Positions 41,993-49,311 of a stretch of 54,217 nucleotides of DNA are shown one piece after another. Source of the DNA: Candidatus Competibacteraceae bacterium (GTDB lineage: Bacteria > Pseudomonadota > Gammaproteobacteria > Competibacterales > JAHEDQ01); assembly GCA_024641125.1 (NCBI GenBank), contig JAHEDQ010000004.1:1-54217 (forward strand), written 5' to 3'. Both the position numbers and the translations under genes were made by a program. Every line of letters begins with the position of its first letter. The first letter of the stretch is position 1. The notes below the pieces were generated by a model. That model did not search any database, was not told where the DNA came from, and saw only the letters and a list, made by a program, of their open reading frames with translations.

Positions 41993-42412
41993 ATGGATCT
42001 CAAAGGCAGCAAGACGGAAGGTAACCTGAAGGACGCATTTTCGGGTGAGTCACAGGCCAACCGCCGGTACTTGTACTTCGCCGCCAAGGCGGATGTGGAG
42101 GGTTACAATGACGTGGCAGCCGTGTTCCGCTCCACCGCGGAGGGTGAAACAGGCCATGCCCACGGCCATTTGGAATATCTGGAATCCGTTGGCGATCCGG
42201 CAACCGGTCTACCGATTGGCGCAACCGGCGACAATTTGAAAGCCGCCATCGCCGGCGAAACCCATGAGTACACCGACATGTACCCGGGCATGGCCAAGTC
42301 AGCCCGAGATGAAGGTTTCGACGAAATCGCCGACTGGTTTGAAACCCTGGCCAAGGCCGAACGGTCTCATGCCAACCGGTTCCAGAAGGCTTTTGACAGT
42401 CTGGATGCCTGA
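41993..42412 (+). CDS. Rubrerythrin (ferritin-like diiron domain, no rubredoxin domain)
   Basis: 139 aa [63 protein letters not shown]; ends without CxxC rubredoxin domain. Confidence 0.92.
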
Positions 42413-42424
42413 GTCGGCACCATC

Positions 42425-42454
42425 CGAGGGGCGGGTCATCGCCCCTCGCTTTTC
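42425..42454 (+). terminator. Terminator-like hairpin after rubrerythrin
   Basis: cgaggggcg-ggtcat-cgcccctcg followed by cttttc. Confidence 0.7.
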
Positions 42455-42480: not shown

Positions 42481-43827
42481 ATGTCAGCAGCGACCGGTGG
42501 CACGCGCGAGGGGAGTCTGGAGGCACCCACCCGACATCCGCTCGATTGGAAGAACGCAACGTTCTGGGATCAGGAGAACCTGGATCGAGAACTTGAGCGT
42601 GTGTTCGATATATGCCACGGCTGCCGGCGATGCGTCAGTCTGTGCAACTCATTTCCGACGCTGTTTGACCTGGTGGATGAATCCGACACCATGGAAGTGG
42701 ACGGTGTCGCCAAGTCAGACTATTGGAAGGTGGTTGAACACTGTTACCTGTGCGATCTCTGCTACCTGACCAAGTGCCCCTATGTGCCGCCCCATGAGTG
42801 GAACGTGGATTTTCCTCACCTCATGCTCAGGGCCAAGGCGGTACACTTCAAGGAACACGGCGCGAGCCTACGCGACCGGGTGCTGAGTTCAACCGATACG
42901 GTGGGCAAACTCGCCGGCATTCCGGTGGTGAGCGGTGTGGTCAACGCCAGTAACCGGAACGGCACGATGCGGCGGGTTCTGTCAAAGGCCCTGGGGGTGC
43001 ACGAGAACGCACCGGTGCCGCCCTACCATAGCGACACGCTGAGCAAGCGCATGGCCAAACGCCAGCCCTCATCGTTGCAAGCTGAATCTACCGATCTGAC
43101 CACAGGAAAGGTGGCGCTGTTCGGCACCTGCTACGGCAACTATAACGAACCGGATATCGGCACCGATCTGGTGTCCGTTTTTGAGCACAACGGCGTCCCT
43201 GTGACTCTGGTCGAGAAAACCCGGTGTTGCGGCATGCCCAAGCTGGAACTGGGTGATCTGGATGCCGTCGCCGCCGCCAAGGACATCAATATTCCGCTGC
43301 TGGCATCTCTGGTGGATCAGGGCTATGACATCGTTGCCCCGGTGCCGTCCTGTACATTGATGTTCAAGCAGGAACTGCCACTGATGTTCCCGGATGATGC
43401 TGAGGTGGCCAAGGTGCAGCAGCGTATTTTCGACCCGTTCGAGTATCTTATGCTCCGCCACAAGGCGGGCAAGCTTGCCACCGACTTCAAGCAGTCCCTG
43501 GGCAAGGTCGCCTATCATGTCGCCTGCCATCTACGGGTCCAGCGAATCGGTCTGAAGACCCGCGACCTCCTGCAACTGGTGCCCGACACCCAAGTCGAGC
43601 CGATAGAGCGCTGCTCGGGTCATGACGGTACCTATGCGGTCAAGCAGGAGTTCCACGACATTTCGATGAAAATCGCACGGCCCGTGGTAACCCGGGTGGA
43701 GAAAATGGACGCCGATCATTATGGTAGCGATTGTCCGATGGCCGGGCATCAAATTGAGAACGGTCTGGGCAAGGAAATGCATCCGGAGCACCCCATGACC
43801 CTGCTCCGCAAGGCTTACGGAATCTGA
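42481..43827 (+). CDS. Heterodisulfide reductase/GlpC-like 4Fe-4S and CCG-domain protein
   Basis: CHGCRRCVSLCNSFP, CYLCDLCYLTKCPYVPP, RCCGMPKLELGD, RCSGHDGTYAVK. Confidence 0.88.
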   Translation: MSAATGGTREGSLEAPTRHPLDWKNATFWDQENLDRELERVFDICHGCRRCVSLCNSFPTLFDLVDESDTMEVDGVAKSDYWKVVEHCYLCDLCYLTKCPYVPPHEWNVDFPHLMLRAKAVHFKEHGASLRDRVLSSTDTVGKLAGIPVVSGVVNASNRNGTMRRVLSKALGVHENAPVPPYHSDTLSKRMAKRQPSSLQAESTDLTTGKVALFGTCYGNYNEPDIGTDLVSVFEHNGVPVTLVEKTRCCGMPKLELGDLDAVAAAKDINIPLLASLVDQGYDIVAPVPSCTLMFKQELPLMFPDDAEVAKVQQRIFDPFEYLMLRHKAGKLATDFKQSLGKVAYHVACHLRVQRIGLKTRDLLQLVPDTQVEPIERCSGHDGTYAVKQEFHDISMKIARPVVTRVEKMDADHYGSDCPMAGHQIENGLGKEMHPEHPMTLLRKAYGI

Positions 43828-43846: not shown

Positions 43847-44146
43847 ATGTCGAATGAGGGTTACCACGAGCCGATTGGCGAACTGAGCGACGAGACGCGC
43901 GACATGCACCGCGCCATCGTATCGCTGATGGAAGAACTCGAAGCGGTCGACTGGTACAACCAGCGCGTGGATGCCTGCAAGGATGCCGACCTGAAGCACA
44001 TTCTTGAGCACAATCGTGACGAAGAGAAAGAACATGCCGCTATGGTGATGGAGTGGATTCGGCGGAAAGATCCGACCTTCGACAAGGAACTGCGTGACTA
44101 TCTGTTCACCGACGCACCCATTGTCGACCCGGACCACGGACACTGA
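43847..44146 (+). CDS. Encapsulated-ferritin-like (EncFtn-type) ferritin-like protein
   Basis: 99 aa; ETRDMHRAIVSLMEELEAVDWYNQRVDAC...ILEHNRDEEKEHAAMVMEWIRRKDP...LRDYLFT: recalled EncFtn-type sequence pattern (EELEAVDWY, HNRDEEKEHAAM). Confidence 0.82.
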   Translation: MSNEGYHEPIGELSDETRDMHRAIVSLMEELEAVDWYNQRVDACKDADLKHILEHNRDEEKEHAAMVMEWIRRKDPTFDKELRDYLFTDAPIVDPDHGH

Positions 44147-44193: not shown

Positions 44194-44820
44194 ATGACTG
44201 AGATACCGATTGGTTCGGAGCCATCACGAATGGAAAAGTTGTCCCGACAAGATTTGTTTTCCCTGGAGGCCTATGCCGAGGCGCGACCGGATTTCCGCGC
44301 TCAGGTCCTCAGGCACAAGGCGGCTCGGCGCATAGAGCTTGGCGATCACGCGACACTCTACTTCGAGGATCGGATGACCATGCAGTACCAGATTCAGGAA
44401 ATGCTGCGGGTCGAACGCATTTTTGAGGCCAGCGGCATTCAGGAAGAGTTGGACGCATACAACCCGATGATCCCGGACGGCAACAACTGGAAAGCCACCT
44501 TTATGCTGGAGTATGAGGACGTGGCCGAGCGGCGCGATGCGCTGGCCGCCCTGATCAATGTGGAAGATCACACCTGGGTGCGGGTGGCTGACATGCAGCC
44601 GGTTTACGCCATCGCCGACGAAGATCTGGAGCGGGAAACCAGTGACAAAACTTCATCGGTGCACTTCATGCGCTTCGAGCTGACGCCCCAGATGGTCGAG
44701 GCCGCCACCGCCGGTGCACCGATCAGCATAGGCATCGACCATCCGGCCTACACCGTGTCCCTGGAACCTATTCCAGAGCCTTCGCGGGAATCGCTCGCGG
44801 CCGATCTCAAGGCCGGCTGA
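44194..44820 (+). CDS. DUF3501 family protein
   Basis: Start taken from ORF track; EKLSRQDLFSLEAYAEARPDFRAQVLRHKAARRIELGDHATLYFEDRMTMQYQIQEMLRVERIFE typical of DUF3501. Confidence 0.85.
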   Translation: MTEIPIGSEPSRMEKLSRQDLFSLEAYAEARPDFRAQVLRHKAARRIELGDHATLYFEDRMTMQYQIQEMLRVERIFEASGIQEELDAYNPMIPDGNNWKATFMLEYEDVAERRDALAALINVEDHTWVRVADMQPVYAIADEDLERETSDKTSSVHFMRFELTPQMVEAATAGAPISIGIDHPAYTVSLEPIPEPSRESLAADLKAG

Positions 44821-48123: not shown

Positions 48124-48666
48124 TCATCTCTGATGCAAACGACTGCGCAACGCCTGAAATCGCGATGGCATGCTGCGGCCGAACAGGGGATCCTCCATGT
48201 GCACCAGCCTGCGGGCAATGGTCTGCCAATCGGCCGATTCGAAAATCTGGTCCACCAGCGGCAGTACGGATCCCTCCTCCACCTCCATGTGCCGATGGAA
48301 GCAAACGGTATAGGCCTGGCCAAGATTTGAGACCATGTCAACGTCAAACTCGCATGTCCGCTCGGCCCACGCGACCGCCAGGCGCAGTTCCGCACCCCGT
48401 TCCGCCAGTTCAACGTGCTCCCGCACGAGTTCAGCGAGCAGATCCGCCAGACTGGCATCCCGAGCCACCAGGCGCTTGAAAATTACATCTTCATTCGGAT
48501 GGTGAAACAGCTCTGCATAATCGAGGATATACGCCATGGCGTCCCCGATCAGTTGAAAATCGGCCTCGTTGCCGGCACGCAGCCGATCGAACTCGGCGCC
48601 CATCCACCTGAGTACACGCGCTGCGTTATCGTGGTCCAGATAAAGTCGATCGAGGGCCGCATGCAT
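48124..48666 (-). CDS. Hemerythrin HHE domain-containing protein
   Basis: LYLDHDNAARVLRWM...AELFHHPNEDVIFKRL...LVREHVELAERG...FHRHMEVEEGSVLP. Confidence 0.88.
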   Translation of the reverse strand: MHAALDRLYLDHDNAARVLRWMGAEFDRLRAGNEADFQLIGDAMAYILDYAELFHHPNEDVIFKRLVARDASLADLLAELVREHVELAERGAELRLAVAWAERTCEFDVDMVSNLGQAYTVCFHRHMEVEEGSVLPLVDQIFESADWQTIARRLVHMEDPLFGRSMPSRFQALRSRLHQR

Positions 48667-48732
48667 GACCACTTTCCCCCTTTCTTGCACACCGCGGCCA
48701 TTCGCCAGCGCGGTGCTCCGCGGTGCGGATCG

Positions 48733-49311
48733 TCAAGTTCGGTCGAACAAGGGCGCCTGTTCCGGGTGTTCACGCTCATATCGGAACATAAACGCGGAGG
48801 CGGCCGAATCCAGTTGTTCGATATGAAGCCGCCACCAGGTCGGCGCCGTGTGACCCAGAAACTCCAGGCAGGATTCCGCCGATGTGGTGTGTCCCAGCAG
48901 CCGGCAGTGCAGTGTCAGCAAGCTTAGAAAACGTTGGTGCGCCAAAACATGCTTGGCTGCGCCGGGACAGCCGCTTCGCTGCATCGCCCGCTGCTCAGCC
49001 GCGAACAACTCTTTGGATGCGTTGGTGAGCTGATCGAACTCGCCGCCCAGCAAAGCCGACAGGGTGGTATCCCCAGCGGGCCGTGAGATGCAGATGTCGC
49101 ACATTTTGGCAAGGTGCGACAAAATCACCTGATGGCGATGGCGCATGAACTCAATGCACACATCGGCGCTGTCTGGAATCATCGGCTGTGCGCTTTCGTA
49201 TTCTGCCACCATCACCGCCTGCAAATACCGGTCTCCAGTATGTGGACTGGAAACGTGCCCGACCCCTCGCCTACCTGGACAGAGCGCCGATATCGACGCC
49301 ATCACGAGCAT
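48733..49311 (-). CDS. Hypothetical protein, possible divergent hemerythrin-like
   Basis: RHRHQVILSHLAKM...ELFAAEQRAMQRSGCPGAAKHVLAHQRFLSLL resembles the bacteriohemerythrin pattern HF..EE..M...gyp....H...H..F, with the first H replaced. Start uncertain (perhaps MVAEYESAQP). Confidence 0.5.
   Translation of the reverse strand: MLVMASISALCPGRRGVGHVSSPHTGDRYLQAVMVAEYESAQPMIPDSADVCIEFMRHRHQVILSHLAKMCDICISRPAGDTTLSALLGGEFDQLTNASKELFAAEQRAMQRSGCPGAAKHVLAHQRFLSLLTLHCRLLGHTTSAESCLEFLGHTAPTWWRLHIEQLDSAASAFMFRYEREHPEQAPLFDRT

What the first reader, a model, noticed from the sequence alone, without database searches (positions are those of the whole stretch)
43847..44146. EncFtn-type ferritin without an encapsulin shell gene nearby
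The 99-aa protein matches the recalled encapsulated-ferritin pattern (EELEAVDWYNQR, HNRDEEKEHAAM). However, its C-terminus (FTDAPIVDPDHGH) shows no obvious encapsulin-targeting peptide and no encapsulin shell gene is found in this window. Known EncFtn systems pair with an adjacent encapsulin. This may be a shell-free ferroxidase working with a rubrerythrin and an Fe-S oxidoreductase.
Basis: partly seen in the sequence, partly recalled or inferred. Interest (0 to 1): 0.65.

Follow-up and report, generated by a model that had tools for sequence, protein, structure and literature searches.

The report
Shell-less EncFtn in rubrerythrin operon
The gene encodes a ring-forming iron-oxidising ferritin of a type usually packed in a protein shell, but here and in most related bacteria there is no shell; it sits inside a peroxide-defence operon, and this recurs in unrelated bacteria, which gives a testable hint of what the naked version does.

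Summary
Window 43847-44146 (+) encodes a 99-aa EncFtn-family protein (Pfam EncFtn-like, 152 bits). It has every ferroxidase-centre residue, no targeting peptide, and no encapsulin gene in the window or its 94%-complete genome. The implied anomaly is wrong, because shell-less EncFtns are known: N. europaea NE0167 (PDB 3k6c, 79% identical), "Non-EncFtn" (He 2016), "s-FLP" (2024 review). In 276 Gammaproteobacteria, 76 genomes carry EncFtn, and 59 of them carry no classical encapsulin. Among the sampled loci, the targeting tail went with an adjacent shell gene in 16 of 17 cases and was absent in all 63 without one.

The new part is the neighbourhood. The gene lies in an operon RBR > RFO > EncFtn > DUF3501, the known "aerobic-type rubrerythrin" module with EncFtn in the RFO/DUF3501 junction. 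EncFtn is in this module in 18 of 63 shell-less loci (16 in exactly this slot), in another class of the phylum, and in three genomes that also hold a separate encapsulin-paired EncFtn. I found no report of the four-gene form in the literature held here.

Best reading: an unencapsulated decameric ferroxidase that removes Fe2+ while rubrerythrin removes peroxide. Identity and linkage are shown; the mechanism is inferred. Novelty is modest and the open question is directly testable.

The parts
41993..42412 (+). aerobic-type rubrerythrin (RBR/erythrin, 139 aa, no rubredoxin domain)
   Evidence: Pfam Rubrerythrin 103 bits; closest solved chains 9onm, 4di0 and 8fuh rubrerythrins and sulerythrins
42425..42448 (+). 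10-bp hairpin in the RBR-RFO gap followed by CTTTTC; possible attenuator or processing site
   Evidence: Scan hit; a stem of 8 bp or more lies in this gap in 57 of 64 modules, mean 11.2 bp against 6.3 in shuffles
42481..43827 (+). [quoted passage not shown]
   Evidence: Pfam CCG x2; NCBIfam GlpC model 257 bits, below its cut-off of 278; name from Cardenas 2016
43847..44146 (+). shell-less EncFtn (s-FLP), 99 aa; ferroxidase centre E30, Y37, E60, H63; entry site E29, E32; putative exit site H55, E59, E62
   Evidence: all nine residues invariant in 81 homologues; AlphaFold model best matches 3k6c
44230..44820 (+). DUF3501 protein (ORF opens at 44194; ATG 44230 fits homologue N-termini)
   Evidence: Pfam DUF3501 250 bits; model matches 3fjv, unknown function, TM 0.91

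Best explanation
The protein is a shell-less EncFtn (s-FLP type) that forms the usual decameric ring with five di-iron ferroxidase centres, and it works free in the cytoplasm as one part of a four-gene peroxide-defence operon. Proposed working: RBR reduces H2O2 with electrons supplied by RFO. EncFtn meanwhile takes up Fe2+ through E29/E32 and oxidises it at E30/Y37/E60/H63, which removes Fenton fuel. The ring holds only a few tens of Fe3+ and passes iron on (candidate sink: the classical ferritin on contig C75) or has it re-reduced. DUF3501 has an unknown supporting role. Shown here: family, residues, missing tail, missing shell gene, conserved operon. From literature on relatives: decamer (3k6c), ferroxidase activity and low capacity (R. 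rubrum). Inferred: co-transcription, the RFO electron route, functional coupling with RBR, and the fate of Fe3+.
For: Family and residues. No shell; the single-contig genome G017 carries the module EncFtn and no PF04454. Tail against shell: 16 of 17 encapsulin-paired EncFtns carry (V/I)G(S/P/N/D)L on a 28-48 aa tail, while 0 of 63 shell-less ones do, with a median tail of 9 aa (14 in the module). Operon: RBR>RFO>EncFtn>DUF3501 on one strand with short gaps (68, 19 and 47 nt in the window) in 16 loci with differing outer flanks (one of them cut before RBR by a contig end), plus two with EncFtn after DUF3501. In another class the order is the same (L278). Of 46 genomes with both genes, 18 have them adjacent, about 0.2% expected by chance. 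Genome-level co-occurrence of shell-less EncFtn with DUF3501: odds ratio 4.5, P 7e-7, not corrected for phylogeny. Peroxiredoxin, OxyR-like and glutathione-reductase genes recur near other shell-less copies. Separate copies: G012, G175 and G218 have one EncFtn with encapsulin and another in the module. Isolated R. rubrum EncFtn is a ferroxidase and binds about 48 Fe per decamer (PMC5012862).
Against: No expression or biochemistry was tested. In He 2016 shell-free R. rubrum EncFtn was slow, precipitated with excess iron and showed no peroxidase activity, so a naked ring may be a poor detoxifier. 45 of 63 shell-less EncFtns lie outside the module, and of 80 close named relatives only 2 are in it, so the module cannot be the sole context. 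On the RBR-RFO-DUF3501 tree EncFtn comes and goes at least 7 times, and presence is barely clustered. A Dps-substitute role gets only weak support (P 0.02, lost within DUF3501+ genomes).
Confidence: 0.55

Rival explanations
1. EncFtn is only co-located: the operon gives it a peroxide-responsive promoter, and it acts independently of RBR, RFO and DUF3501 as a generic iron oxidiser.
For: Most shell-less EncFtns stand elsewhere with no constant neighbour. Gain and loss of EncFtn from the module are frequent, and in 59 of 60 examined modules without EncFtn, RFO and DUF3501 are direct neighbours, so the module works without it (the 60th is cut by a contig end).
Against: The same slot (RFO/DUF3501 junction) is used in 16 of 18 cases, on divergent backgrounds and in a second class. 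Shell-less EncFtn also co-occurs with DUF3501 genome-wide.
Confidence: 0.27
2. It supplies or withdraws iron for RBR: an iron-loading or iron-salvage partner for the rubrerythrin di-iron site, with RFO providing electrons to release Fe2+ from the ring.
For: Gene order RFO>EncFtn; iron sites on the ring surface and limited capacity suit a transient buffer.
Against: Most modules lack EncFtn, so RBR does not generally need it. No iron-transfer motif was tested.
Confidence: 0.12
3. It is encapsulated after all, by an encapsulin in the unassembled part of the genome or through an unrecognised tail signal.
For: The genome is 94% complete; the 2024 review leaves s-FLP encapsulation open; the family-2 shell search had no working control.
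Against: No TP, against 16 of 17 shell-paired relatives with one; 59 of 76 EncFtn genomes in the class have no PF04454, including complete ones; in G012 and G218 the tail is kept only on the shell-paired copy.
Confidence: 0.04

Closest known systems
N. europaea NE0167 (PDB 3k6c), 's-FLP' / 'Non-EncFtn'
   Same: About 79% identical; 95 against 99 aa; same short tail without targeting peptide; same ferroxidase residues. 3k6c is a decamer.
   Different: In the window the gene is inside the RBR module. NE0167's own context was not examined here (no N. europaea record among the fetched loci).
Encapsulated EncFtn of R. rubrum (Rru_A0973) and H. ochraceum
   Same: Fold, ferroxidase-centre and entry-site residues
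   Different: Those carry a long C-terminal tail with a targeting peptide and are paired with an encapsulin; here neither is present. In the survey, position 71 is I in 94% of shell-less and L in all sampled shell-paired proteins; position 44 is Cys in 60 of 63 shell-less against 6 of 18 shell-paired.
Aerobic-type rubrerythrin module RBR-RFO-DUF3501 (Cardenas et al. 2016, PMC5114695)
   Same: The same three genes in the same order, including a rubrerythrin without rubredoxin domain
   Different: An EncFtn is inserted between RFO and DUF3501. The paper's text has no 'encapsul' and mentions 'ferritin' only for the superfamily in the passages found. Its Figure 3 shows unnamed 'HYP' genes that I could not view.
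Flp-fusion encapsulins in operons with rubrerythrins (large-scale encapsulin survey 2021, PMC8346489)
   Same: EncFtn domain genetically linked to a rubrerythrin
   Different: There the EncFtn is fused to a capsid protein; here no capsid was found.

Membership tests
EncFtn-like family (PF22277 / TIGR04535) | Profile score above curated cut-off | tested here: met
   151.9 bits (cut-off 27) and 138.1 bits (cut-off 125)
EncFtn-like family (PF22277 / TIGR04535) | Ferroxidase-centre residues (Rru E32, Y39, E62, H65) | tested here: met
   E30, Y37, E60, H63, invariant in 81 homologues, mapped
EncFtn-like family (PF22277 / TIGR04535) | Two antiparallel long helices plus a short third helix | tested here: met
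   AlphaFold H15-43, H47-74, H78-86; best PDB match 3k6c. TM 0.70 with rmsd near 5 A, so helix packing of the isolated monomer is loosely modelled
EncFtn-like family (PF22277 / TIGR04535) | Annular decamer | not testable with these tools
   No multimer prediction available; inferred from 79% identity to 3k6c
Encapsulated (shell-paired) EncFtn | C-terminal targeting peptide | tested here: not met
   Tail ends FTDAPIVDPDHGH; 0 of 63 shell-less against 16 of 17 shell-paired match the motif
Encapsulated (shell-paired) EncFtn | Encapsulin gene adjacent or in the genome | tested here: not met
   None in window genome for PF04454, with the 94% completeness caveat
Shell-less EncFtn (s-FLP / Non-EncFtn) | EncFtn core, short tail, no targeting peptide, no adjacent shell | tested here: met
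Aerobic-type rubrerythrin module (RBR-RFO-DUF3501) | RBR without rubredoxin domain, RFO and DUF3501 as one co-oriented cluster | tested here: met
Aerobic-type rubrerythrin module (RBR-RFO-DUF3501) | Co-transcription and peroxide-reductase function | not testable with these tools
   Inferred from spacing and gene identity only

The most novel reading that the evidence does not exclude
The naked EncFtn ring is not a storage protein but a rechargeable iron buffer: it oxidises Fe2+ during a peroxide burst, and RFO, which also powers rubrerythrin, re-reduces the Fe3+. The four genes would then form one redox circuit joining peroxide removal to reversible iron withdrawal, an encapsulin-independent role for EncFtn.
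Probability: 0.15. Interest if true: 0.65.

Novelty: new variant of a known kind. Interest (0 to 1): 0.4.

Why it matters
Isolated EncFtn oxidises iron but cannot store it (He 2016; PMC8346489), so what the many shell-less EncFtns do, and whether they are encapsulated, is open (review PMC11202242). The survey shows that the targeting tail and the shell gene go together, and that the shell-less form dominates in the Gammaproteobacteria sampled. It also identifies a recurrent peroxide-defence operon as the most frequent neighbourhood of the shell-less form in that sample, which makes the function testable by simple gene removals. It further adds a candidate partner to the rubrerythrin/RFO/DUF3501 module, whose electron route and DUF3501 role are unsolved.

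Tried and rejected
Encapsulin elsewhere in the genome: none found with PF04454; PF19307 was uninformative because no control rang. A single clade of module EncFtns: the tree needs 13 changes and is poorly resolved (89 columns), and on the 781-column RBR-RFO-DUF3501 tree presence needs 14 changes, at least 7 forced by well-supported branches, so there was no single capture without repeated loss. EncFtn as a Dps substitute: weak anticorrelation (10 of 63 against 65 of 213, P 0.02) that vanishes among DUF3501+ genomes; not claimed. DUF3501 function by fold: the only real match is 3fjv, itself of unknown function. L174 first looked like RFO next to EncFtn; the hit is only 30 bits and was dropped.

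Full report
What is there. The ORF at 43847-44146 (+) encodes a 99-aa protein. It scores 151.9 bits on Pfam EncFtn-like and 138.1 on TIGR04535. Its nearest solved relative is NE0167 of Nitrosomonas europaea (3k6c), followed by H. ochraceum and R. rubrum EncFtn. Mapped from the R. rubrum residues given in He et al. 2016, the ferroxidase centre is E30, Y37, E60 and H63, the entry site E29/E32, and the putative exit site H55/E59/E62. All are invariant in 81 homologues, shell-paired and shell-less alike. AlphaFold gives the expected helices (pLDDT 84), and Foldseek ranks 3k6c and the EncFtn crystal structures first.

No shell. The tail after YLFT is about ten residues without a targeting peptide. 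The window's genome (4.76 Mb, 94.4% complete, 357 contigs) has one EncFtn and no PF04454 encapsulin. The family-2 shell search had no working control. The one PF00210 ferritin found is on contig C75, and no Dps was found. I read the C75 protein as FtnA-like from its sequence, without a subfamily test.

How unusual is that? Not very. In 276 Gammaproteobacteria of at least 90% completeness, 76 genomes have a full-length EncFtn. Seventeen have an encapsulin, and in all 17 an EncFtn lies next to it; 59 have EncFtn with no PF04454. I fetched 80 further EncFtn loci and classified them by neighbours. With the window this makes 17 shell-paired EncFtn genes, one degraded fusion-like locus (L132), 18 in the rubrerythrin module and 45 elsewhere. 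Of the 17 shell-paired proteins, 16 carry a (V/I)G(S/P/N/D)L peptide on a 28-48 aa tail. None of the 63 shell-less proteins does. Eighty close named relatives (Gamma-, Beta-, Alpha- and Zetaproteobacteria) had no adjacent encapsulin. He et al. 2016 already named a 'Non-EncFtn' group, and the 2024 review calls them s-FLP and leaves their encapsulation open. These sets are samples, and many genomes are metagenome-assembled.

The surroundings. The window gene is third of four co-oriented genes: rubrerythrin without rubredoxin domain, RFO, EncFtn, DUF3501, with gaps of 68, 19 and 47 nt. RBR-RFO-DUF3501 is the aerobic-type rubrerythrin module of Cardenas et al. 2016, also found in mitochondria-targeted form in Andalucia. 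I fetched 60 modules from genomes whose EncFtn, if any, is not in the module. In 58 of them RBR, RFO and DUF3501 follow one another directly; the other two (L217, L243) are cut by a contig end, L217 still showing RFO-DUF3501. In the 18 EncFtn-bearing modules of the class sample, EncFtn sits between RFO and DUF3501 in 16, and after DUF3501 in two: L055 with a peroxiredoxin between, L072 next to an OxyR-like gene. The outer flanks differ between families. The same four-gene order appears in a genome of another class (L278) and in two named records, one of them Thioalkalivibrio sp. (L194; L175). Adjacency in 18 of 46 genomes that hold both genes is far above the roughly 0.2% expected by chance placement. 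G012, G175 and G218 keep a shell-associated EncFtn and a separate module copy.

History. A 781-column tree of RBR+RFO+DUF3501 needs 14 changes of EncFtn presence, at least 7 forced by well-supported branches, and presence is hardly clustered. The EncFtn tree is too short to resolve the order, but shell-paired proteins separate from shell-less ones with few changes, 3 against 16 in shuffles. Repeated gain into one slot, or repeated loss, cannot be told apart.

Mechanism. Established for relatives: the decamer; Fe2+ oxidation; about 48 Fe per decamer, then precipitation; no peroxidase activity; bulk storage needs the shell. RFO as electron supplier for RBR is Cardenas's proposal. My inference: when peroxide rises, RBR removes H2O2 while the naked ring removes Fe2+, and the small Fe3+ load is passed to ferritin or re-reduced. 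The weak point is the fate of Fe3+. A Dps-replacement version was tested and found weak. DUF3501 remains unknown; its fold matches only 3fjv.

Novelty. The protein is a new member of a known kind. The four-gene RBR-RFO-EncFtn-DUF3501 operon is a variant of a known module that I did not find described: EncFtn with rubrerythrin gave 8 papers and DUF3501 gave 5, judged from titles, abstracts and the passages read, not full reading of all. Subscription papers and figures were not available, so earlier mention cannot be excluded.

Noticed in passing
window 42425-42448 and the RBR-RFO gap of the modules in L055-L272: A GC-rich hairpin of varied sequence sits in the rubrerythrin-RFO gap: stem of 8 bp or more in 57 of 64 modules, mean 11.2 bp against 6.3 in shuffled gaps. 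It may be an attenuator that sets rubrerythrin above the downstream genes.
   Followed up: partly
L098:4896-5264 (-): A shell-less EncFtn with a Lys/Pro/Ala-rich, histone-H1-like C-terminal tail (AEKPAAKPKAAPKAKKPTPKSE); possible DNA binding in the manner of Dps.
   Followed up: no
window 43847-44146 codon 44 and homologues: Cys44, by the predicted turn between the two long helices, is kept in 60 of 63 shell-less EncFtns but only 6 of 18 shell-paired ones; the reason is unknown.
   Followed up: partly
L079:4015-5291: Rubrerythrin-like ORF directly upstream of a shell-less EncFtn; no RFO or DUF3501 in the locus and no DUF3501 hit in that genome: a reduced RBR-EncFtn pair.
   Followed up: no
L132:4527-5933 (-): EncFtn domain joined in one frame to the C-terminal half of an encapsulin, with the N-terminal half missing: fusion or decayed remnant.
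   Followed up: no
L285, L286 (G337, G484): Divergent EncFtn-like proteins (about 65 bits to the window protein) ending ILFTTGDIVKAGERGEKKVD; an encapsulin lies elsewhere in G337 and G317 but none was found in G384 or G484.
   Followed up: no
window 48124-48690 (-) and 48733-49311 (-): A hemerythrin-domain (HHE) protein next to a 192-aa ORF without any Pfam match.
   Followed up: no
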